A stretch of 64,000 nt of DNA, taken from Glutinoglossum americanum. Its lineage: Eukaryota > Ascomycota > Geoglossomycetes > Geoglossales > Geoglossaceae. A model generated the notes under the pieces. The model searched no databases, was not told the origin of the DNA, and was given only the letters and a program-made list of their open reading frames with translations. Every line of letters starts with the position of its first letter. The stretch's first letter is position 1. The translations under genes were made by a program, and so were the position numbers. The stretch lies in contig JAGHQL010000125.1 in assembly GCA_020080175.1 (NCBI GenBank), forward strand, positions 16,474-80,473. Direction: 5' to 3'. Below are positions 711 through 14,200 of the stretch, piece by piece.

Positions 711-3700
711 ATGGCGACCATCGAGGATGGCTTCAAGCAGGTCCTAGGCGACTTCAAAAAGCGACTCAAACCAGGAGAGGAAGAAAGATTTGCCCTCACC
801 ACTCTTGCCGACCTCGAAAAGGCGGCTAGTGACCTCCAAGAAAAGCAGAGGAAGAGCAAAACTGCTCAGAATCTGAAGAGGATCGAACCTTTTCTTCAAG
901 CAATGGCGCAATACAAAGGAATCATTGAAGTGTTCCTGAACACTTCTTCTATTCTCAGCTTTGTTTGGGGCCCGATGAAATTCATGCTTCTTGTAAGCCG
1001 ACGTCATATTCGATGCCATTTTCACTCGTCATATGCCGTGCCAAATCTCCGATAGAGATCTGACCATTTTCAGATTGCGAGCAATTGGAGCAAGGCATTT
1101 GATGTTCTGCTTGATGCGTATAAGCAAATTGCGGAAAACTTTCCGTTACTCTTTAAGTATCGTTCAATATTTGGAGAGAACGATCACATGAAGAAAGTCC
1201 TCGTATGGATATATGAAGACATCTTGAAATTCCACCTTCGTGCCTGGCGCATATTCTCGCAACCCGGTATGTCGCTCATTTGAATTTCCATGTTGCATAA
1301 TTCGAGTCTAATTGGTTCTAGCATGGAGGCAACTCTTCACTGCAACATGGAAAGACTTTCACGAAAGCTTCAAGCCAATTCTGAGTGATCTCCTCCGTCA
1401 TCGGGAGCTGGTTGAGAGTACCGCCAGCCTCGAGCAAATTCAAGAATCGCGTGATGCACGTCTCCAATCCCAGGCTTCATTTGCAGCGCTCGAACTGGAG
1501 CAAACCCGCACGAAAACACTTGCCGTTGCCAACTGGCTTTCTGCAGCTGACGTTGATGTCGACCAAGGCGCATTCGCTGCAACAAGACACGATATCCCCG
1601 ACACTGGCCGATGGATTCTCGAGGAGCCTAAGATCAAGGACTGGTTAGACCCCAGCTCAAGTTCGGTGCCAATTGTCTGGTTAAATGGCAAACCTGGAGC
1701 GGGTCAGTTCAGTCTCCTTAATAAAAGCTTCTCTATTTATTTATCATCGTATTGCGCTCTGGTTATATGTTAACCTTTCACAGGGAAAAGCATTCTCGCT
1801 TCAGTCCTCATCGAGGAGTGCTCAAGAGTTGCTCAGTCATCAGTGGATATCTCATTGGCATTCTTCTACTGTAGGGACCGAGATGGACAGAGGAACAAAT
1901 TCACTAGCGTTGCAAAGGCGATGTTGGCGCAATTGCTCCGTCAAAACCCAAGCATCCTACCATATCTCTTTGACGAGTGTCTGAAAAGCGCCAAAGTGAC
2001 GCTGGCGTCCTCGCAAGATTGTATCGAGTTACTGGGTACTGTTCTGCGGGCGGTCCCTCAGACGCTCCTCGTAATTGACGGCATTGATGAATGTGAACAG
2101 AAAGAGAGAAAAGCAATACTTAATTTCTTCACTTCAGCTATCACCAGTGATGATATTAAGCCTGGAAAACTCCGGGGCTTGTTCGTCAGTCAAGAACTCA
2201 GTGACATAAAGACAACGTTGCATATAGCCGACTCCCTTCGATTGACGAAAGATCACAATAAGCTGGATATAAGGAATTTTGCTGTCAGATGGGCTGTGAG
2301 GATTCAAGAAAGGTTCAACCAGATGCCAGACCTAGCAAGAGAGCATATCGTCAAACTGGTCTGCGACGGTGCTGATGGAATGTTCCTTTTCGCGAAGCTC
2401 GTTTTAAACAATCTTTACGACCAGGGAAATTTGGAAAATGTTTACAAAGAGCTGCATCCCGACACCTTTCCTAGAGGCTTTGACCAAGCGTATGTACTCA
2501 GGGTCAACAATTGAATCTAGGTTAACCATATGCAGATATGCTCGAATCGTTGACAGAATATTCAAAAACCCAAACCATGTCCAGCGACAGACTACACTAA
2601 AGCTTCTTGGCTGGATCACTTTTAGTAAGCGGCCGATGAAGTGGCATGAGATCCAAGGTGCCACATCTATTGATATCCAGCAACGCGTAGTCAATTTCGA
2701 GGGTCGGCAGATGCCGGACCACATACGAGATACCTGCGGATCTCTTGTGGAAATCCTACCTGGAAATAGAATGCAGCTAGTACATACAACTGCCAGACAG
2801 TAAGCACTTCTGGTTGAGCCAAATCTGCCCTACTAATAACACTTCTTAGTTACCTAATCCACGAGAAGTGCCTGGATGGTCCGAAAGAGGAGACGCAACT
2901 TGCTATCTTATGCATGCAATATCTCACCTTTGATTGTTTTGAGGCGAATTTGTCTCACGATAGCATATTGAGGTCCATGAAAGGTGGCTATTACGCCTTC
3001 CTCGACTACGCGAGTTTGCATTGGTACCACCACCTGGAGACTGCCCTCACATCGCTCAAGCCGGAGAATCTTGGCCATTCGACAGACCTCGGCATGGCCA
3101 TCAACGAGTTCTTCGAAATGTATGAGCCGGGTCCGATGCAACAGGACAAAACACACAAGGAGTTCATGGATCGGTGCTCAGCAATCAAAGATGCAGAGTG
3201 TTACGAGCCCCTTTTGTTGCTCGTGAGCCACGCGAAAGCATGCCGAATTGCCGAAGAGAAGTTGGAAGCGCTTGGTGCGTTAGGGGAAAAGATCACGAAA
3301 ATCCGCACTATCCTTGAGGAGCTGAGCGCCTGCGCGACTCTAGACGTTGCCACAAAGCAGAAACTGAAGCTATTCTATGGAGACAAGTGGCACAAATGCT
3401 CGCGACACGCATGCTACTATTTCCACGAAGGATTCGCCAACGAAAGAGGTCTCTCGCAGCATATCAACCGACACGAGAAGCCTTTTTGCTGCACCGAGAT
3501 GGGCTGCACAAGGATGTACATCGGGTGGAGCACGCAGAAGGAACTGAAGAGACACATGAGCCAGTATCATCCCGATCCCGATGCCTTCTCATGGAAGTTC
3601 CCCCACGTCAAGAAACCGCCTGCAAAGTTCCAGTGCAATTTGTGCGAGAGGACGTATAGCAGGGCGAATTCTCTCAATACGCATCAGCTCAGGGAACATG

Positions 3701-3846
3701 CGAAGGAACGCCCGTTCATTTGTAAGATTTGTGGAAAGGGATTTGTGAGGAACTATGAGTTGAACCGCCACGAGAGCACACACAAAAATAAGAGCGCGGG
3801 GAATTCACAGAGAGATACACATCTAGGAGGAAGCTGTGAAGAGTAG
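711..3846 (+). CDS. NACHT (STAND/NLR-like) protein with four C-terminal C2H2 zinc fingers
   Basis: Six exons at 711-992, 1074-1266, 1322-1702, 1784-2489, 2536-2799 and 2850-3846 give 940 residues with frame kept across all five GT-AG introns. The helical N-terminus (about 1-240) resembles the fungal domain often placed before NACHT (DUF7708-like). Walker A, GKPGAGKS at about 280-288, is split by an intron inside its glycine codon; Walker B is LLVIDGIDEC at about 379-388. A winged-helix-like region with HTTARHYLI follows. Four C2H2 fingers lie at about 792-920: two with C-x4-C spacing, then two classical C-x2-C-x12-H-x3/4-H. The family is expected to be an ATP-driven molecular switch; zinc fingers replacing the usual ankyrin or WD sensor suggest nucleic-acid or protein binding, which is inference. 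Start chosen as the first ATG giving the full N-terminal domain. There is no stop or frameshift, so it looks intact. Confidence 0.88.
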
Positions 3847-4999
3847 CGGTGAGTTGCGGCTAGATCATGATAATGACTACCAAAAAGGGTATATCATCGG
3901 TACTTGATCACGTGAGGACATGGGCCAAACATTAAGAACGAATGCCAAGCCCACAACAATGCCATCCGCATTACACCTGGATGCCTCCCCTGACAGCATA
4001 TCACTCGCATGAAGAATTCGTTGTACTAACGGTGCATCCATGGCTTGTAAAATCACCTTTTGATGAAATTAGTCCGGTGGTGACTACGGCAAGTGTCTTA
4101 ACCAACCTAGATGATAGGATATTTACAGCCTTCTTCTTGAGTCACCCGCATCTGCGCACGAGCAATGACCGGGCGGGCCAGGCTTGTCCCTAGATAATAA
4201 GAAAGCGGTGAGCACAAGCTCCGTCGATGGGGTGTGCAGCAGCAACGCACCAGGCGAGCTGGGCGAGCGCCAGTTAACGAAGACGGGATGAGAGCGCCAG
4301 ATGCCCAATACGTACTATCTTCCTTCATATTGTGCGTTGCATTGGATTGCACGGAAACAAAGCTGCTCGACGAACTCGCAGCGCAATCATCTCCGAGGCA
4401 TCAATCATTTTCGCCTTGGCTCGGACCTCACCCCAGCCTTTCTGTTGCCCTCTATCAGCAAGGAAGCAGACGGCTTCATAGCCCTTGCCAAGGAGCCAGC
4501 GCAAAATGCAGCTGGTGTTGAGACCACCTGTGCGACGTTAGTCGGGGTTCATGGGAACACGGTGATTGGGCAAGACTAACCAGAATAGGCTAGACAAACT
4601 CTGCCTTCATCTTCAGAGACTATAGAGGTTGATGGTAAAAGTGTTTTATCCCTATGCTTCACAATTGATGATGGGCCGCGCTTCTTGAGAGTGATAGAAA
4701 TGATATCAATGCCCCACCAAAGGGATGTGTTGCGCGTCATGGATTACCACCTGTAACATCCAACGTTGGTTCATATTAAGTGAACGGATTAGCGGCCCAA
4801 CAAGTGCCCAACAGACCACCATTGTGGGTCCGGTATTAACGTCCACCATAAATCCCGTTCGCTCCTCTTCTTGTAACGTAATAATCAACCCGGGAAACTC
4901 TCATAGCCAATTATCATACGTTTCTTTCCATCTCCTTCTCTTCCGCCACTGTATACATAACCATATCTCAGCCTTCTGGTAGACGGGAACGGAGAGACG
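3847..4999. other. Spacer with one gene relic and the methyltransferase promoter
   Basis: The only recognisable coding material is the argininosuccinate synthase fragment annotated separately on the minus strand. The part from about 4620 to 4999 should contain the promoter and leader of the downstream methyltransferase. A CACGTG-like site (GATCACGTGAGG) occurs near 3906. Nothing else was recognised. Confidence 0.5.
4107..4620 (-). pseudogene. ARG1: Argininosuccinate synthase fragment (decayed ARG1-like relic)
   Basis: The minus strand carries the N-terminal part of argininosuccinate synthase, the arginine-pathway enzyme joining citrulline and aspartate. Reading down from 4620: GRVCLAYS, then a 53-base GT-AG intron (4580-4528), then GGLNTSCILRWLLGKGYE and further matching sequence. 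In another frame (4380-4311) REFVEQLCFRAIQCNAQYEG follows, and after about 110 unmatched bases YYLGTSLARPVIARAQMRV at 4200-4140, ending in KYPII and a stop. These blocks are in the right family order but are broken by frame changes and stops. The start ATG is absent, the aspartate of the SGGLDTS ATP-binding motif is asparagine, and everything after about residue 130 is missing. It retains an intron, so it derives from genomic DNA rather than a retrocopy. Confidence 0.8.
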
Positions 5000-6016
5000 A
5001 TGGACCCACCAAGTGAGCTGCCTATATATGGCCCGGCAGACGAGCTAAACCCCGACTCTGCGTTCGAGGAAGACTCGGAGAGCTTCACGAGCTCGTTGGG
5101 CCCAGAGAGCTATGACTTCCACTTTGAGAATGGCAGGAGATACCATGCACTTCACGCCGGAGAATATTGGGGACCTAATGACGAGAGACAGATTGAAGCT
5201 GAAAGGATTACCCATCGTTTATATCTCTTAACTCTTGATGGCCAGCTCTGCGCTGCTCCGCTTGCTGCTCCTCCTCATAGGGTACTTGACATTGGCACCG
5301 GAGCCGGAAGTTGGGCGATCGACTTTGCGGCAAAACATCCAAGCGCGGCCGTTCTAGGTACAGATCTATCGCCAATCCAGGATCTCTTTATCCCATCGAA
5401 TCTTAGGTTCGAGATCGTCGACTTCTGCGATATGTGGTCTTATTCAGAAAACAGCTTCGACTTTGTATTTTTGCGAGGGCTGGACGGCTGTGTGCGTGAT
5501 TGGCCCAGGCTCTATGCGGAGGTATACAGGGCTCTCAAACCCGGTGCGTACATTGAGCACTCTGAAATGTGCATCGAGCTTAAGTCGGACGACGGAGCTG
5601 TCGCCCCTGAGCATATCTTTGGAAGGTGGCGCAAGATGTTGCTCGAAGCTAGCGACGCATACGGGAAACCCCTGGGCATCGCCGACCAAACCAAAGAGCT
5701 CAGCGAAGCTGCCGGGTTCGTGGAGGTGGTAGAACAGAGATTCAAATGGCCCATCGGAGGGTGGAATCAGGAAAGGAAACTCAAGGAAATTGGGAGGTTG
5801 AACAAAAAGCATTGGGAGCAAAGCATAGAGGGATGGTGCATTGCACTATTAACCAGAGCTCTAAAGTGGACGGTGCCGCAAGTAAGAGGGTTTCTGCGAG
5901 AGATGGAGGAAGGGCTTAGGGATAGCAACATCCATGCCTACCACGAGGTCACGGTTCTATATGGCCGGAAACGCGAATCAGGATCAGAGACTAGATCCGA
6001 AGAATCTGAATTTTAG
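5000..6016 (+). CDS. SAM-dependent methyltransferase, LaeA/UMTA-like
   Basis: A single exon encodes 338 residues. SAM-binding motif I is VLDIGTGAGSWAIDFA at about residues 93-108, followed by the acidic-loop segment GTDLSPIQ and the post-motif LRGLDGCVRDW. This is the fungal class I (Rossmann) methyltransferase layout seen in LaeA-like proteins and enzymes annotated TAM or UMTA. The acidic N-terminal leader (about 40 residues) is also typical. LaeA itself regulates secondary metabolism; most paralogues of this size have unknown substrates, so no substrate is claimed. It stands alone between an NLR-like gene and a second NLR gene on the opposite strand, only 89 bases tail to tail from the latter. 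No biosynthetic core gene is nearby. Confidence 0.85.
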   Translation: MDPPSELPIYGPADELNPDSAFEEDSESFTSSLGPESYDFHFENGRRYHALHAGEYWGPNDERQIEAERITHRLYLLTLDGQLCAAPLAAPPHRVLDIGTGAGSWAIDFAAKHPSAAVLGTDLSPIQDLFIPSNLRFEIVDFCDMWSYSENSFDFVFLRGLDGCVRDWPRLYAEVYRALKPGAYIEHSEMCIELKSDDGAVAPEHIFGRWRKMLLEASDAYGKPLGIADQTKELSEAAGFVEVVEQRFKWPIGGWNQERKLKEIGRLNKKHWEQSIEGWCIALLTRALKWTVPQVRGFLREMEEGLRDSNIHAYHEVTVLYGRKRESGSETRSEESEF

Positions 6017-6105: not shown

Positions 6106-9100
6106 TTATTCTATATGCTTCCTCTGCTGTTCCTCAAGCAGCCGGACGACGGACTCGTGTCCATTTCTGGCGGCCTGCGACAGCGACGTTCTACCACTAC
6201 CATCCTTAGAATTTAGGCTGGCACCATTTTCGAGCAATAACCGGACGATGGCCTCGTGTCCATTTCTGGCGGCCTGCGACAGCGGCGTTCTGCCGTCATC
6301 ACCCCTAAAGTCTAGGTTGGCACCATTTTCGAGCAACAACCGGACGATGGCCTCGTGTCCGTTTCTGGCGGCCTCCGATAGCGGCGCTCTGCCGTTATAG
6401 TCCTTAGAGTGTAGGATAGCACCGTTCTCGAGCAACAGCCGGACGATAGCCTCATGTCCTTTACTAGCGGCCTCCGTTAGCGGTGATTCGCGGTACAACC
6501 TCTCAGGGTTTGGATCCGCGCCGCTTTTTAACAGCAGCCGGACGATGAACTCGTGTCCATTAGAGGTGGCTTGCCACAGGGGCGTTCGGCGGACCGTTGC
6601 CGCGAAGTTTGGGTCCACGCCGTTTTCTAGCAGCAGCCGGGCAATAGACTCGTGTCCCCCATAGGCAGCGCACCATAGGGGCGTTTGACCTCCCGCGCCT
6701 AGGGAGTTTGGGTCGGCACCGTTTTCGAGTAGTGTCCGGACTCTGGATTCGAGTCCGGCACTAGCAGCGCAACATAGGAGCGTTTGGCCGCCTGGTCCCG
6801 CGCAGTTTGGGTTGGCGCCTTTTTCGAGCAGCATACGGGTTATGACATCGTTCCTGATTGTCCACCATAGTGGCGTCCGGCCGGTCGTATCCTTAGAGTC
6901 CGGGTCGACCTTAGGGTTCGCAAGCAGGAGTCTTACGATGGTCTCGTGCCCGTTACGGACAGCCCACCGTAATGCCTTCTTGCCGGCCGGGTCCTTGGAG
7001 TCTGGGTCGGCACCCCTTTCGAGCAGCAATTGGACGATGACCTCATTTTCCAGCTTCGTAAATATGGATAAATAGCTGTCCAATACGTCTTGCGCAATAA
7101 TTGCTTCTCCCTCCAGCAGCACCTGGACAACCTTGTCGTGGCCTTTAATAGCGGCTGCGATGAGGGGGTGGCAATGTTCCCCTCCTGCGACGTTGACATT
7201 AGCCCCTGCGCCGATAAGAATCTGAACAATCCTTTCATGGCCATTTACCGCAGCTGCCTGTATGGCACTGCCATATCGCTCTCCCGTGGCGTCGATATCG
7301 GCTTCGCCATCTAACAGTACCCGCACGAGATTCAATAGATTTTTTTCTGAAAGAATGTATAGCACCTTTACTTCTGGAGTATACCGACGGATATCGTACC
7401 GTTGGAAGATACTGTTGAGGTTTGCCCATTTGTGCATTTTGGAGTTAGGGGGTTCGAATTCCCTTAAAAGTTCCTTCTGGGAAATACCCCAGCTTTGCGC
7501 AGCGTCAGCATGGATGAAAATATTGTTAACGGCATATTCAAGAAATGGGAATGCTTCGGATGCTATTTTCCGGAGATCTTTAGCCGCTTGCGAATTTGCA
7601 CATGGTAGCGCATCATTGAAAAAGTCCTTGAACATGTCCGTAATAATATATTGATAACAGCATCGTTTAAGCTGCTCCTGGCTAAGCCCGGTCATATTGG
7701 CTGTAAGGTCGGGTTGAAGCTGGGCTAAGCCATTCCTCAGGAGGAAGAAGTCACGCACAGTCTCATGAATGAACTGGACGGTTTGATCTTTTGACACTTC
7801 CGCAAGTCCCTTTGAACAGCTAAGAATAAATCTGTCAATGGTCTCGTGGCTGACTTCAGCGGGATTCCATTGCCCTAATGCCGTAGGTTCGGTTCCGGAC
7901 AAAACAGCAAAATAGAGTTCCTCACGCTTGAGGGGTCTCTGCGTAAATAAAAGCCATTGTAGACAGAGTATTGACTCATCCCTTGTTTCGACATCTCGCA
8001 TTAAGATGTCGGCAAATAACTCGTCCAGCTCGTCCGGAATTTCGTTAAGCCGACGTCGTAGTGTGTGTATTTGACCATGATCATATGCCTTGTTCAGCAT
8101 TTGCACAACTAATACGACCCACAAAAATACCCCCGATGCTCTACTAAGTATTTCAGCTTTGATATCATCCATCTGCTTGCTTGCTGGGGCCTTGAACTTG
8201 CTTTGGACGTATGTTGAAATGTCATTGTCGTGGCCACCCTGTCTGTCTATATCTAGCTGAATACCATTCTGGATGCTTATATGCGGATAGTGGCGACTCG
8301 ATAAGCATATATTTAGAGACGTTCCCGAAGATAGAGCTGCCTCTGCTAGACTCTCGAGAAACTCAACCATTTTGCGTACCTCATTCTCTTCGCATTCGTC
8401 GAGCGCATCGATAAAGCAGACTAATCGATGTTGTTGGAGATCCTCAATAGCGGTAATAAAAAACTCCTGAAGTTCCTCAGCGTTCCACCCGTAGATATCG
8501 TTGTGGTTTGGCTTCATCAGGAATATTGGAACAAAGAGATCTTGTAGAGCGGGAAGTGCTGTCAGGAGCTGGAACAGTAGCGAGCGGTACATTCCCAAGG
8601 TCGATTTTTCGAGGATACTGCCTCGCGCATTAAAGAAAAACGAGATAATGGTAGCGCCTCTCGATGCCTTCTTAGTTTTGAGAAGGGCGTGCTTCATCAT
8701 CGTTGATTTCCCAGCTCCAGGCTTTCCTTTGATCCACAGGAAACCGTGATGTTCATAGATCAAATCCCTGTTCAGCCACTTCTGGTATTCCAGCTGCTCA
8801 AACAGCCAATTACATGTCCTCTCATGAGCTTTCTTGATATTCATAAGTCTTGCATCAATTTGCTGGAAGGACAAGGAATCAAGGCAAGCTTTTTTCTGTT
8901 CTTCAGTAGCCGCTGCAGTGAATTTCGGTTGCTCTACGGAGGATGGACTCATCTCTGAGCATAATCCTATAACTCGGGTTAAAATGCGATACCTATCAAA
9001 TGAACGTCAGACTGACCTAATTGCCCCGCATTATCCTCAATGACCTGAGATATGCGACGGAAAGCTGCAGTAACTTTTTCATACTCTCCGTCATCAAGCC

Positions 9101-10113
9101 CTTTGAACCGGCACATGTCCATGTGATTACCAGCAATATGTTGCGTAATCTCGATCGTCGAGTCTCCAAAGGCTGACGAAGTGTCCTCCACTACCTATGA
9201 ACGGAGTAAATATTAGCAACGCACACTCTTGTCTACAGGGCTTAGTAATTCTAACTTTATCACCATTTAGAAATTTGAGTCCATACTGCTCTTGGAAAGA
9301 GTATAACATCCAATTCTTGGAACGTGACATTCTACTGAACTCGTCACGGAGCTCTCTAAGTCGTTCGGAGCTTGGTAGTAAGCTGTTGACAAGCTGGTCG
9401 TTCACGACGAATCCAGCAAGCCGCACAACTGTCTCAGCAGCGCGATAAACTACACCCCGTGGATCTGCTCCGCTATGAGGAGTGCCGAAACAAATGAGCG
9501 CAATAGTAGCATCGTAGATACTATAAAGGTGACTGTGATGCGCCTGCTGACCCTCAGATCTCCGCAACGCTTCCTTGACTATGATTCCCCCCAGACTGTG
9601 CGCGACGAATATGAGGGGTCTAGATGGCTGAGAGCTTCGTCTTGCCTCCAGACTTAGTAGGAGGTTGTGCCCTAGATCATACACTGTGCTTTTACTTGCA
9701 GGAGCTCCAAGGCGATGGCGAATGTTGCTGTCGTATCCATACGTCAAGACTCGGGCGTTCGTCAGAGTCGTAGGTAAAAGATCTTGCGGCCAGAAGACAG
9801 TCTTGTTGGCTACTGCCCTCTTAGAGTCAGAACCGATGAGGCGACGGAACTTGGAGGGACGCTCTCTACTGTCGTTGTTGTGCGTCGTTCCGTTATCCTG
9901 GGACACTTCGCCAAAGTATGTCCAAGTGCGTCGAGGGTGGCCGGTGAATCCATGCACGAAGACGACACTATTTAACGGTCAGCACTGTATACTTTACTAG
10001 AACTTAATTCCATACTCTATCGCGGCGGAAGGAGGGTCTGCTAAGACCGTAAGGCCCTCCAGGCGCACGTCAGCTTCGGTAGGTAGCTTAACTCCAACAT
10101 TGCATGCATCCAT
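6106..10113 (-). CDS. SesB-like alpha/beta hydrolase - NACHT - ankyrin repeat protein
   Basis: Four exons (10113-10016, 9967-9256, 9194-9017, 8954-6106) give 1278 residues. The N-terminus (about 30-300) is a SesB-type alpha/beta hydrolase: DVVFVHGFTGHP, then VAHSLGG with the likely nucleophile serine at about 157, and FGTPHSGAD. A linker with TIEITQHIAGNHMDMCRF is typical of fungal SesB-NACHT proteins. NACHT follows, with Walker A GKPGAGKST at about 406-414 and Walker B VCFIDALDEC near 508-517. From about 870 to the end the protein is ankyrin repeats. The family is proposed to act as non-self receptors in which ligand binding to the repeats activates the hydrolase; that role is inference here. 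The start is the first ATG after an upstream in-frame stop. The last five ankyrin units are nearly identical in DNA. Confidence 0.9.
6142..6636 (-). repeat. Near-identical 99-bp tandem ankyrin coding units
   Basis: Units begin at 6142, 6241, 6340, 6439 and 6538 with an exact 99-base period, one 33-residue ankyrin repeat each. The first three differ at only a few bases over the conserved half (CTCGTGTCCATTTCTGGCGG and equivalents); identity falls in the upstream units toward 7300. This gradient suggests recent duplication or gene conversion at the 3' end of the gene. Confidence 0.85.
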
Positions 10114-11271: not shown

Positions 11272-14200
11272 CTAACCGTTGGAAAGTTCGTTCTCTCCCT
11301 TGGGGTCTTCCCCAATATATACGGCATTTTCCATTTTCAGCTTTATCAGCTCAGCAATTTTCGAGTGGCTGACCCACTCCGCCATTTCCAACGCCGTTCC
11401 TCCATTCCCGTTTCTTGCCTCGATGTTGGCCCCATTGTCAAGGAGCAGCTCGACTAAGTCCAAGTCGCCTTTCGCAGTGGCCCAGTGCAACACCGTCCAC
11501 CCAGCAACAGTTTCTTTTGCCTCAGTGTCGGCTCCCCTGTTGAGCAATAGTCTGACTACATCAAAATGGCCCCCTACAGCTGCATCGTAAAGCGCTGTGT
11601 GCGCATATGATCTTTCTCTAACTTCGATGTCAGCTCCTTTGTCAAGAAGCAGCTTCGTCGCATCGAAGTGACCAAACGAGGCTGATCTATATAGTGCCGT
11701 CTTTCCATCTGCATCCTTGGCCTCGATATCAGCTCCCTTACTGAGAAGCAATTTGATGACATCTAGGTTGTCGCTTGAGGCTGCCATGAGCAAAGCCATC
11801 TGTCCACACTCGTCCGTAGTCTTGATAGCTTCTGTGTCTAGCAGCCGTGTGGCTAGGTCTAACCGGTCTCCAGGGGCTGCCATGAGTAGCGCTATTCCTT
11901 CAGGATTCCCTTTGGCCCCTTTGCTAAGTAGCAGCTTCACCACTTCCAAGTGACCGTTCGAGGCCGCCATGAGCAACGCCGTCCTTCCGTTATTATCCGC
12001 AGCATCAATATCAGCTCCTCTCTCAAGAAGCAGCTTAACAACTTCTAAACGACCCCCCAACGCTACCCTATGCAATGCTGTCTCCCCATATATGTTGTTA
12101 GCCTTAATGTTAGCTCCTTTGTCAAGCAGCGCCTTGACCGTCTCCAAATGACCTCCCAAGGCTGCCTTGTGTAGTGCTGTTTGTGCCCACTTATCCGTGG
12201 CTTCAACACTGACTCCCTTGTCGAGTAGTAGTTTAACCACTCCTAAGAGGCCTAGGGAAGCCGTCATGAGCAATGTCGTTGACCCATCATAATCCTTGGC
12301 CTCGGCATCGGCTCCGTTATCAAGCAGGATCTTGACTGCCTCCGGGTGATTGCAAACGGCAGCCCTGTGCAATGCAGTTTGTGTCCACAGATTCTTAACC
12401 TCCATATTTGCTCCCTTGTCGAGGAGCTGTTTAATAACGCCCAATTGGCCATATGAGGCTGCCATGTGCAGCGCAGTGAATTTCTGCGGATCAGTCGCCT
12501 CAATATCGGCACCTTTGTCTAGTAGCAGTTTGGAAACCTGCTCATGACCGTGCCAGGCCGATTGATGGAGTGCTCTCTTTCCAACATTACCCTCGGCCTC
12601 TACCTGAGCACCCCTGTCTAGCAACAATCTCACGACCTCGACATCTCCCCTCTCCGCTGCAATGCACAGGGCTGTCTCTCCATCCTCATACTTGGCCTCT
12701 ATATCGACTCCTTGGTCAAGTAGTGCTTCCACGACGCCCTTAATCCCAAAAGATGTTGCGACGTGCAAGCAAGTATATGACTTTGGGAACCTCTGGCTAT
12801 ATCCTTGATATAAATGGTTACCCGCACCCATAGCCTGTACGGCACTTTCGAGGTTTGGACCCTTGCCACAAAATTCGATAGCTAAACCTTGGTAGTCATC
12901 TTCAAGGGTCTCTCGGGCGTGATCGCCCCAATGCTGCGCAGCGTATTGGAGAAATGGACTCGTATCTAAACGGGACTCGTATTCTTCATCACTGAGGCAA
13001 GGTCCGTCGCCAAATGCGTCAAAACAAAGGTAGGTCAGGCAAGCCTGCGTAATTTCTGAATTGCGTTTCGGGAAAAGCGATTGTGAATTCTTGTCGAAGT
13101 ATTCCTGAAGTGTGAAATGGACAAGACGAACAACCAAACTCGCAGGATCAATCCGTACTAGGCCCAGACAATACTCAACCAAAAGATCTTCGCAAGGAAG
13201 GTCGTCTTCGTCAAAGTCGTGCTCGCCCGAACGAACAGCAAGACCGTGGAGTAGTTCAGCGATTTTCAACGGTCTCTTAGCGTGTGCGATCCACATTAGA
13301 ACCCTATGAGCCATGTCCCTTTCAGAGGGAGGTTGGACCCCAATTCTTTTGAGAATATCGCTAAAGTTGTCATCCAACTTTTTAGGTAACGTTTTTAGGC
13401 ATCTTCTAATTTCGCCCTTTGTAGTCTGGTCCAAGATGGCTTGGATTTGTAGTGTAGGCAATAGGAACCTAGGATTACCACAACATCAATCCTTGAACAG
13501 GGTTCTGAAAGGTTGAACTTATAACCACTTACATCCCGTGAGCGCCGTCGACGATTGATGTAACTATGTCTTCCTTCAATTTCTCGTCTTTACCAAGGAT
13601 TTTCTTTGTTTTCCGGTTTTCGAGCTTCTTATATACGAAATCGCTGATGTCAGATTCCACTGCTTCAAGCTTGACTTGCAGAGCATGTCCCAGACTTTCG
13701 TTCAGGTCTTCCGGGTGAGGCCGGCTGGTCACCAGTAACTTCATCGAGATTTCGAATTGTTGAAGGGCGCTCAAAAGCTCGGACCGGCAGTCGCCAGCTT
13801 TACACTCATCTAGAGCATCAATAACCAGATAGACGGCATCAAATCTCTTCGCTGTGGACAGGAGAAGCTCCTGTAATTCGCTCACTTGAGGTATTTGCCC
13901 CTTCATAACGGATCGGTCAAAAAGCTGCTTGACTGGCGCCGGAAGCTCTTCCAATTGTAGCAGCAATTGCTTCAGTAAGCTTGATATAACCTGCTCCAAT
14001 GTCTGCTCGTCCTCGGCGCTGAAGTCAAAGTAAAAAAACACCACGCCTGCATCTTTCCTAGTCTTTGTGATATGGTCAATTGCGAGAGACCTTCGAAAAT
14101 TTAGCTATATAAACTGGGCGTGAAAAGCATACGAGACATACGCGAGAACCGTCTTACCAACTCCTGGATCTCCCTTGCACCACAGAATATTCCCAGCGTC

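What the first reader, a model, noticed from the sequence alone, without database searches (positions are those of the whole stretch)
711..3846. NLR-like NACHT protein whose C-terminus is four C2H2 zinc fingers
Seen: intact Walker A and B followed, in the same spliced frame, by two atypical C-x4-C and two classical C2H2 fingers. Known: fungal NACHT proteins usually end in ankyrin, WD40 or TPR repeats that act as sensors. Inference: the fingers may read nucleic acid or a protein partner, making this a candidate nucleic-acid-sensing or nucleus-acting fungal NLR.
Basis: partly seen in the sequence, partly recalled or inferred. Interest (0 to 1): 0.7.

Follow-up and report, generated by a model that had tools for sequence, protein, structure and literature searches.

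The report
Fungal immune-like receptor with swapped zinc-finger tail
This fungal gene encodes an immune-receptor-like protein whose usual ankyrin-repeat tail appears to have been replaced by two ordinary zinc fingers, while two odd zinc fingers before them turn out to be a standing part of its gene family that a standard domain library does not recognise.

Summary
Six exons (711-3846, +) give a 940-aa protein: DUF7708, NACHT/NPHP3_N with intact Walker A and B, winged helix, then four zinc fingers in one uninterrupted last exon. The interpretation needs splitting. The two atypical CX4C fingers are not special to this gene: six paralogues in the same genome share the chassis and the same finger pair, and Pfam sees the pair in none of the six. 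In five of the six, ankyrin repeats follow it. Only the last two classical fingers are peculiar: they sit where the nearest relatives carry the ankyrin part, and the NACHT tree makes the ankyrin end the likely older state. Best reading: a DUF7708-NACHT NLR-like receptor whose C-terminal sensor was swapped from ankyrin repeats to a two-finger tandem that probably binds DNA or a protein. C2H2-bearing fungal NLRs are already reported as rare (34 of 4613 Sordariales NLRs, PMC12258605), so this is a new variant of a known kind. My searches found no report of the CX4C pair ahead of ankyrin repeats. Binding, localisation and expression are untested.

The parts
711..3846 (+). whole gene, six exons (711-992, 1074-1266, 1322-1702, 1784-2489, 2536-2799, 2850-3846), 940 aa
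   Evidence: splice reconstruction; six paralogues align co-linearly with it; intron places and phases recur
885..1437 (+). DUF7708, N-terminal domain (aa 59-197, over introns 1 and 2)
   Evidence: Pfam PF24809 E 2.4e-15
1600..2157 (+). NACHT / NPHP3_N nucleotide-binding domain (aa 252-410, over intron 3)
   Evidence: Pfam PF24883 E 4.2e-34, PF05729 E 8.9e-10
1687..1791 (+). Walker A GKPGAGKS (aa 281-288), split by intron 3 inside the motif; same place and phase in 6 of 6 paralogue models
2065..2094 (+). Walker B LLVIDGIDEC
2191..2193 (+). position taken as sensor 1 (assignment recalled): Gln here and in C43 and C70, Arg in C46, C250, C290 and C297
   Evidence: alignment
2600..2868 (+). winged-helix domain (aa 543-615), conserved VH near its end
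   Evidence: Pfam PF22939 E 4.7e-9
3397..3570 (+). family CX4C finger pair: F1 3397-3474 (aa 792-817), F2 3490-3570 (aa 823-849)
   Evidence: 7 of 8 zinc ligands invariant in 7 of 7 genes; profile of 4 finds the 3 held-out members
3634..3783 (+). classical C2H2 tandem F3 3634-3699 (aa 871-892), F4 3721-3783 (aa 900-920), in the place of the ankyrin array of the nearest paralogues
   Evidence: Pfam zf-C2H2, 2 stretches, E 5.8e-8; not seen in the paralogue frames

Best explanation
It is a DUF7708-NACHT NLR-like (STAND) receptor of a filamentous fungus. Shown: an intact nucleotide-binding motif set, a winged helix and an arm, ending in a zinc-finger pair (F1-F2) that is a fixed part of this subfamily; after it, two classical C2H2 fingers stand where the closest paralogues have ankyrin repeats. 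Inferred: F1-F2 is a small folded neck that joins the motor to the sensor, and not itself the variable sensor; F3-F4 is the replaced sensor, holding the receptor off until it meets its ligand (a DNA or RNA site, or a protein). Nucleotide exchange and oligomerisation would then expose the DUF7708 end as the output domain, probably for defence or regulated cell death as in other fungal NLRs. Of the ligands, DNA is the single most likely (about 45%), a protein next (about 40%); these odds are judgement.
For: Domains and motifs. Shared chassis and pair: six paralogues align from query residue 1-21 to F2, DUF7708 28-53%, NACHT 26-45%, pair 25-36% identical to the window. A profile of four pairs finds the three held-out members at 74, 54 and 51 bits (those loci had been fetched because single-pair searches pointed to them). 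Three single-pair searches put the same seven loci on top, and a search with the window's whole tail finds the seven too, among 31 matches. Swap: Pfam ankyrin in 5 of 6 paralogues after the pair, none in the window protein; likeness to C70 runs on to FPH[VL]K[KR], about 15 residues past F2, and then stops. Tree: window+C43 98/92, with C70 100/99, both ankyrin-ended. F3-F4: linker AKERP, contact positions R,N,S,T and R,Y,E,R (numbering recalled); the solved relatives listed match F3-F4 almost only and include ZNF568, PRDM9, CTCF and Zif268 (60 of 122 shown; that these bind DNA is recalled).
Against: No transcript, expression or binding data and no orthologue from another species: an assembly or gene-level accident in this one genome cannot be ruled out. 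Two fingers are few for DNA recognition. The single origin of the seven pair genes is weakly supported (45/29; 48% of bootstrap trees), and the tree holds only part of the genome's NACHT genes. The role of DUF7708 is unknown (no paper of the library names it). The position taken as the sensor-1 arginine is Gln in this subclade, so ATP handling may differ from textbook NLRs. The structure model failed (pLDDT 39.8). The spliced paralogue models were guided by the window protein.
Confidence: 0.6

Rival explanations
1. Nucleus-acting regulator: F3-F4 bind promoter DNA and the NACHT motor switches a transcription regulator on or off, so the output is gene expression and not cell death.
For: F3-F4 has a TGEKP-like linker and DNA-type helix residues; solved sequence relatives include known DNA-binding fingers. 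Two-finger fungal regulators such as Msn2, Mig1 and Adr1 exist (recalled).
Against: Pfam reports no transcription-activation domain at E up to 1; nuclear-import signals were not examined; the chassis is shared with ankyrin-ended paralogues in which Pfam sees no such fingers.
Confidence: 0.2
2. Integrated decoy: the two classical fingers are a bait copied from a fungal transcription factor that a parasite's protein attacks, and the receptor guards them.
For: C-terminal place; kinase domains are proposed as integrated decoys in fungal NLRs (PMC12258605).
Against: No close source gene: the two best non-family matches to F3-F4 in the genome are 38% and 36% identical (C288, C277) and no listed one exceeds 40%, so no recent copying is visible in the held 25.8 Mb.
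Confidence: 0.12
3. The fingers are structural only, or the gene is decaying: ankyrin loss left a receptor without a sensor, and F3-F4 have no ligand.
For: Nearest paralogues have ankyrin repeats; no orthologue to show purifying selection.
Against: Whole frame open, splice sites intact, all sixteen ligands of the four fingers present; no ankyrin remnant found in the frames tested downstream (the control was weak).
Confidence: 0.13
4. Zinc or redox switch: the conserved CX4C pair senses zinc or oxidation and gates the receptor, as the paired fingers of Zap1 sense zinc.
For: The zinc ligands are among the few invariant residues of the pair (7 of the 9 invariant columns); paired fingers in yeast Zap1 are tied to zinc sensing (passages of PMC2837044).
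Against: No Trp between the cysteines in any of the 7, and a short linker, where the tCWCH2 motif has longer ones; nothing tested.
Confidence: 0.1

Closest known systems
C2H2 zinc-finger NLRs of Sordariales (Bonometti et al. 2025, PMC12258605; abstract, outline, sections 14 and 36, and passages read)
   Same: NLRs with C2H2 fingers, mostly zinc fingers in C-terminal position, e.g. bombom-1_g5425 with three; zinc fingers proposed there as sensors
   Different: There, the only zinc fingers beside canonical repeats were 16 of treble-clef type; here a CX4C pair that Pfam misses precedes ankyrin repeats in 5 of 7 genes. DUF7708 is named in no paper of the library. The survey used Pfam-A 33.1 and two other HMM sets.
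Canonical fungal NLRs with ankyrin, WD40 or TPR ends (Dyrka et al. 2014, PMC4986451, passages read)
   Same: N-terminal domain, NACHT, C-terminal part; strong modularity
   Different: C-terminal repeats replaced by a two-finger tandem; 'zinc' and 'C2H2' do not occur in the held text of that paper
Tandem CWCH2 finger pairs of Zic/Gli/Zap1 (Hatayama and Aruga 2010, PMC2837044, abstract and passages read)
   Same: two adjacent CX4C-type fingers that may form one unit (for our pair, inference)
   Different: no Trp between the cysteines, shorter linker
Zinc-finger BED NLRs of plants (search listings and abstract starts only)
   Same: zinc finger fused to an NLR
   Different: BED fingers in plant NLRs with LRRs, so another finger type and another chassis

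Membership tests
Fungal NLR / STAND NTPase | NACHT or NB-ARC domain with Walker A and B | tested here: met
   Pfam NACHT and NPHP3_N above cut-off; GKPGAGKS and LLVIDGIDEC
Fungal NLR / STAND NTPase | winged helix after the NACHT | tested here: met
   GPIID_WHD E 4.7e-9, above cut-off
Fungal NLR / STAND NTPase | N-terminal effector domain | tested here: inconclusive
   DUF7708 present, function unknown; no paper with the name
Fungal NLR / STAND NTPase | C-terminal superstructure-forming repeats | tested here: not met
   no ANK, WD40, TPR or HEAT among the 24 families at E up to 1; hence filed as NLR-like, a non-canonical NLR in the sense of PMC12258605, not a canonical one
Fungal NLR / STAND NTPase | ligand-triggered oligomerisation | not testable with these tools
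   needs protein
DUF7708-NACHT-CX4C-pair subfamily (defined here) | co-linear DUF7708, NACHT, WHD, arm and CX4C pair | tested here: met
Classical C2H2 DNA-binding fingers (F3-F4) | C-x2-C-x12-H-x3,4-H, aromatic and Leu core, TGEKP-like linker | tested here: met
Classical C2H2 DNA-binding fingers (F3-F4) | sequence-specific DNA binding | not testable with these tools
   needs protein
tCWCH2 finger pair (F1-F2) | Trp between the two cysteines in both fingers | tested here: not met
   CSRHAC and CTEMGC in the window; no Trp at that place in any of the 7

The most novel reading that the evidence does not exclude
A whole subfamily of fungal NLRs carries a built-in, so far unrecognised double CX4C finger as a regulatory neck between motor and sensor, and in one member the ankyrin sensor was exchanged for a DNA-reading two-finger tandem, giving a nucleic-acid-sensing or promoter-bound NLR that acts in the nucleus.
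Probability: 0.22. Interest if true: 0.75.

Novelty: new variant of a known kind. Interest (0 to 1): 0.47.

Why it matters
What fungal NLRs sense is largely open (recalled). Here one genome offers a natural domain swap on a constant chassis: relatives with ankyrin ends and one with a classical finger tandem. If the fingers bind a defined DNA or protein, the ligand of a fungal NLR becomes directly testable. The CX4C pair also suggests that Pfam-based surveys miss a conserved part of these receptors.

Tried and rejected
Four fingers as one novel block: rejected, because F1-F2 recur in six paralogues. Simple truncation of the ankyrin array: not favoured, because F3-F4 are sequence that the paralogues lack and no ankyrin was found downstream: six frames of 3847-5000 by phmmer with one ankyrin array and five frames by Pfam. 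The phmmer control was weak: C70, C43 and C290 rang at only 26, 17 and 11 bits. Recent copying of F3-F4 from a transcription factor: no near twin. Relatives outside this genome: the viral-contig scan (12 pattern stretches) and the genome-contig scan (32 stretches) confirmed none; neither collection is fungal, so this says nothing about fungi. AlphaFold2 on aa 762-940 without relatives gave pLDDT 39.8; discarded, and no fold search was run. The tree holds 26 rows, 24 different: the seven pair genes and the 19 other NACHT loci that had been fetched (two pairs identical), with long branches; it does not settle where C297 belongs. Papers opened that held nothing to the point: PMC11412873 (passages), PMC9815663 (no occurrence), PMC10197012 (one hit in its references).

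Weak finger-pair profile matches outside the seven genes (frames of L038, L040, L041, L042; 22-38 bits) look like separate finger proteins; no NACHT chassis was noticed beside them, but none was searched for; kept out of the counts.

Full report
The thing itself. The gene at 711-3846 (+) has six exons and five short introns with GT...AG ends and reads 940 aa. Pfam finds DUF7708, NPHP3_N/NACHT, a GPIID-type winged helix and two classical C2H2 fingers. By pattern there are four fingers: F1 and F2 with C-x4-C, F3 and F4 with C-x2-C; 0 of 5000 shuffles of the tail gave two of either kind.

The genome. The window lies in a 25.8-Mb assembly of 317 contigs. HET domains ring 75 times and in 0 of 14 prokaryote controls, NACHT 73 times (it also rings in 11 of the 14 controls, over the cut-off in 3) and DUF7708 26 times, exon by exon. 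HET richness and short introns suggest a filamentous ascomycete; this is inference from recalled knowledge, and no name is held.

The key result. A search with the whole protein brought up paralogues, of which C43 and C70 match it into the finger region. Spliced models of six loci, C43, C70, C46, C250, C297 and C290, align co-linearly from query residue 1-21 to F2 (guided by the window protein). The window's five introns recur there in place and phase: those at aa 158, 285 (inside Walker A) and 608 in 6 of 6, those at aa 94 and 520 in 5 of 6; further introns near aa 86 and 483 in several paralogues are missing from the window gene. A profile built from four finger pairs finds the other three members at 74, 54 and 51 bits. 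Three single-pair searches of the whole genome put the same seven loci on top; the window's whole tail finds them among 31 matches, the others being mostly matches to its classical fingers. Seven of the eight zinc ligands are invariant in 7 of 7, and the eighth is kept in 6 of 7. So the atypical pair is an inherited part of the chassis. Pfam-A reports no zinc finger in any of the six paralogous frames at E up to 0.1; it is a part that this library misses.

What follows the pair. In C43, C70, C46, C250 and C290 ankyrin repeats follow (C290 only weakly, best E 5.2e-6). C297 has no Pfam match; its frame shows a further irregular cysteine-histidine stretch and a proline-rich tail (by eye). The window gene has F3-F4. 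In the NACHT tree the window pairs with C43 (98/92), then C70 (100/99), both ankyrin-ended; the seven pair genes need one change on the tree, but that branch is weak (45/29). Likeness to C70 goes on about 15 residues past F2 (FPH[VL]K[KR]) and then stops, close to where C70 starts its ankyrin part and the window starts F3. The simplest history is one exchange of the C-terminal part on the window's branch. Stretches from six other DUF7708 loci lack the pair; of these, C11 and C155 show ankyrin and C305 TPR, the two further ones given to Pfam (C266, C46 near 109 kb) show no known repeat at 1e-3, and C112 was not tested.

Function. F1-F2 has a 3-residue linker and conserved ligands, which suits a folded neck or docking piece (inference). 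It is not a tCWCH2 unit: the tryptophans are missing and that motif has longer linkers. F3-F4 has a five-residue TGEKP-like linker and arginine at both -1 positions (numbering recalled), and its solved relatives include DNA-binding fingers. I therefore give DNA binding as its task about 45%. The position taken as sensor 1 (recalled) is Gln in the window, C43 and C70 but Arg in the other four; this is a subclade trait that could slow hydrolysis (inference).

Neighbourhood. The next genes are a methyltransferase (4961-6013, +), a hydrolase-like frame plus a NACHT-ankyrin frame, probably one gene (6109-9978, -), and a further NACHT-ankyrin gene in two frames (11275-14104, -), so three NLR-like genes stand within about 14 kb. 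Clustering of NLRs is reported for Sordariales (PMC12258605, abstract). Besides the finding itself, Pfam was run on 20 of the 35 frames of 170 aa or more in the window and on five smaller ones downstream of the gene.

Prior art. PMC12258605 reports zinc fingers in 57 of 4613 NLRs, 34 of them C2H2, and proposes zinc fingers as sensors; 52 of the 57 are C-terminal, and the 16 beside canonical repeats were all of treble-clef type. It used Pfam-A 33.1 and two other HMM sets, so the CX4C pair was probably invisible to it (inference). The held texts of PMC4986451 and PMC9815663 do not hold 'zinc' or 'C2H2'. Literature searches. The claim that the pair is unreported rests on these alone, in an open-access library without preprints or most subscription journals.

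Verdict. Observation confirmed; interpretation partly supported and redirected to F3-F4; new variant of a known kind; function and ligand open.

Noticed in passing
window 6109-9978 (-) and 11275-14104 (-): Two more NLR-like genes (hydrolase-like frame plus NACHT-ankyrin, and NACHT-ankyrin) beside the finding: a small NLR cluster.
   Followed up: partly
window 4961-6013 (+): Methyltransferase-domain gene (Methyltransf_23) between the NLR-like genes.
   Followed up: no
window 4107-4537 (-): Between the NLR-like gene and the methyltransferase gene, a sub-threshold match to argininosuccinate synthase (E 0.0006) and an overlapping frame that by eye resembles that enzyme's N-terminus: possibly a gene relic.
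   Followed up: no
L036:3600-4361 (C297): Second member without ankyrin repeats: CX4C pair, a further irregular Cys/His stretch and a proline-rich tail; no Pfam match.
   Followed up: partly
L038, L040, L041, L042: Separate finger proteins that match the CX4C pair profile weakly; the three given to Pfam (from L040, L041, L042) have no match at 1e-3. Possible source of the pair.
   Followed up: partly
L049:771-2708 (C155): NACHT-ankyrin gene whose end looks like a ZZ-type zinc finger by eye; not reported by Pfam at 1e-3.
   Followed up: no
window 2191-2193; L029, L043: The position taken as the sensor-1 arginine is Gln in the window gene, C43 and C70.
   Followed up: partly
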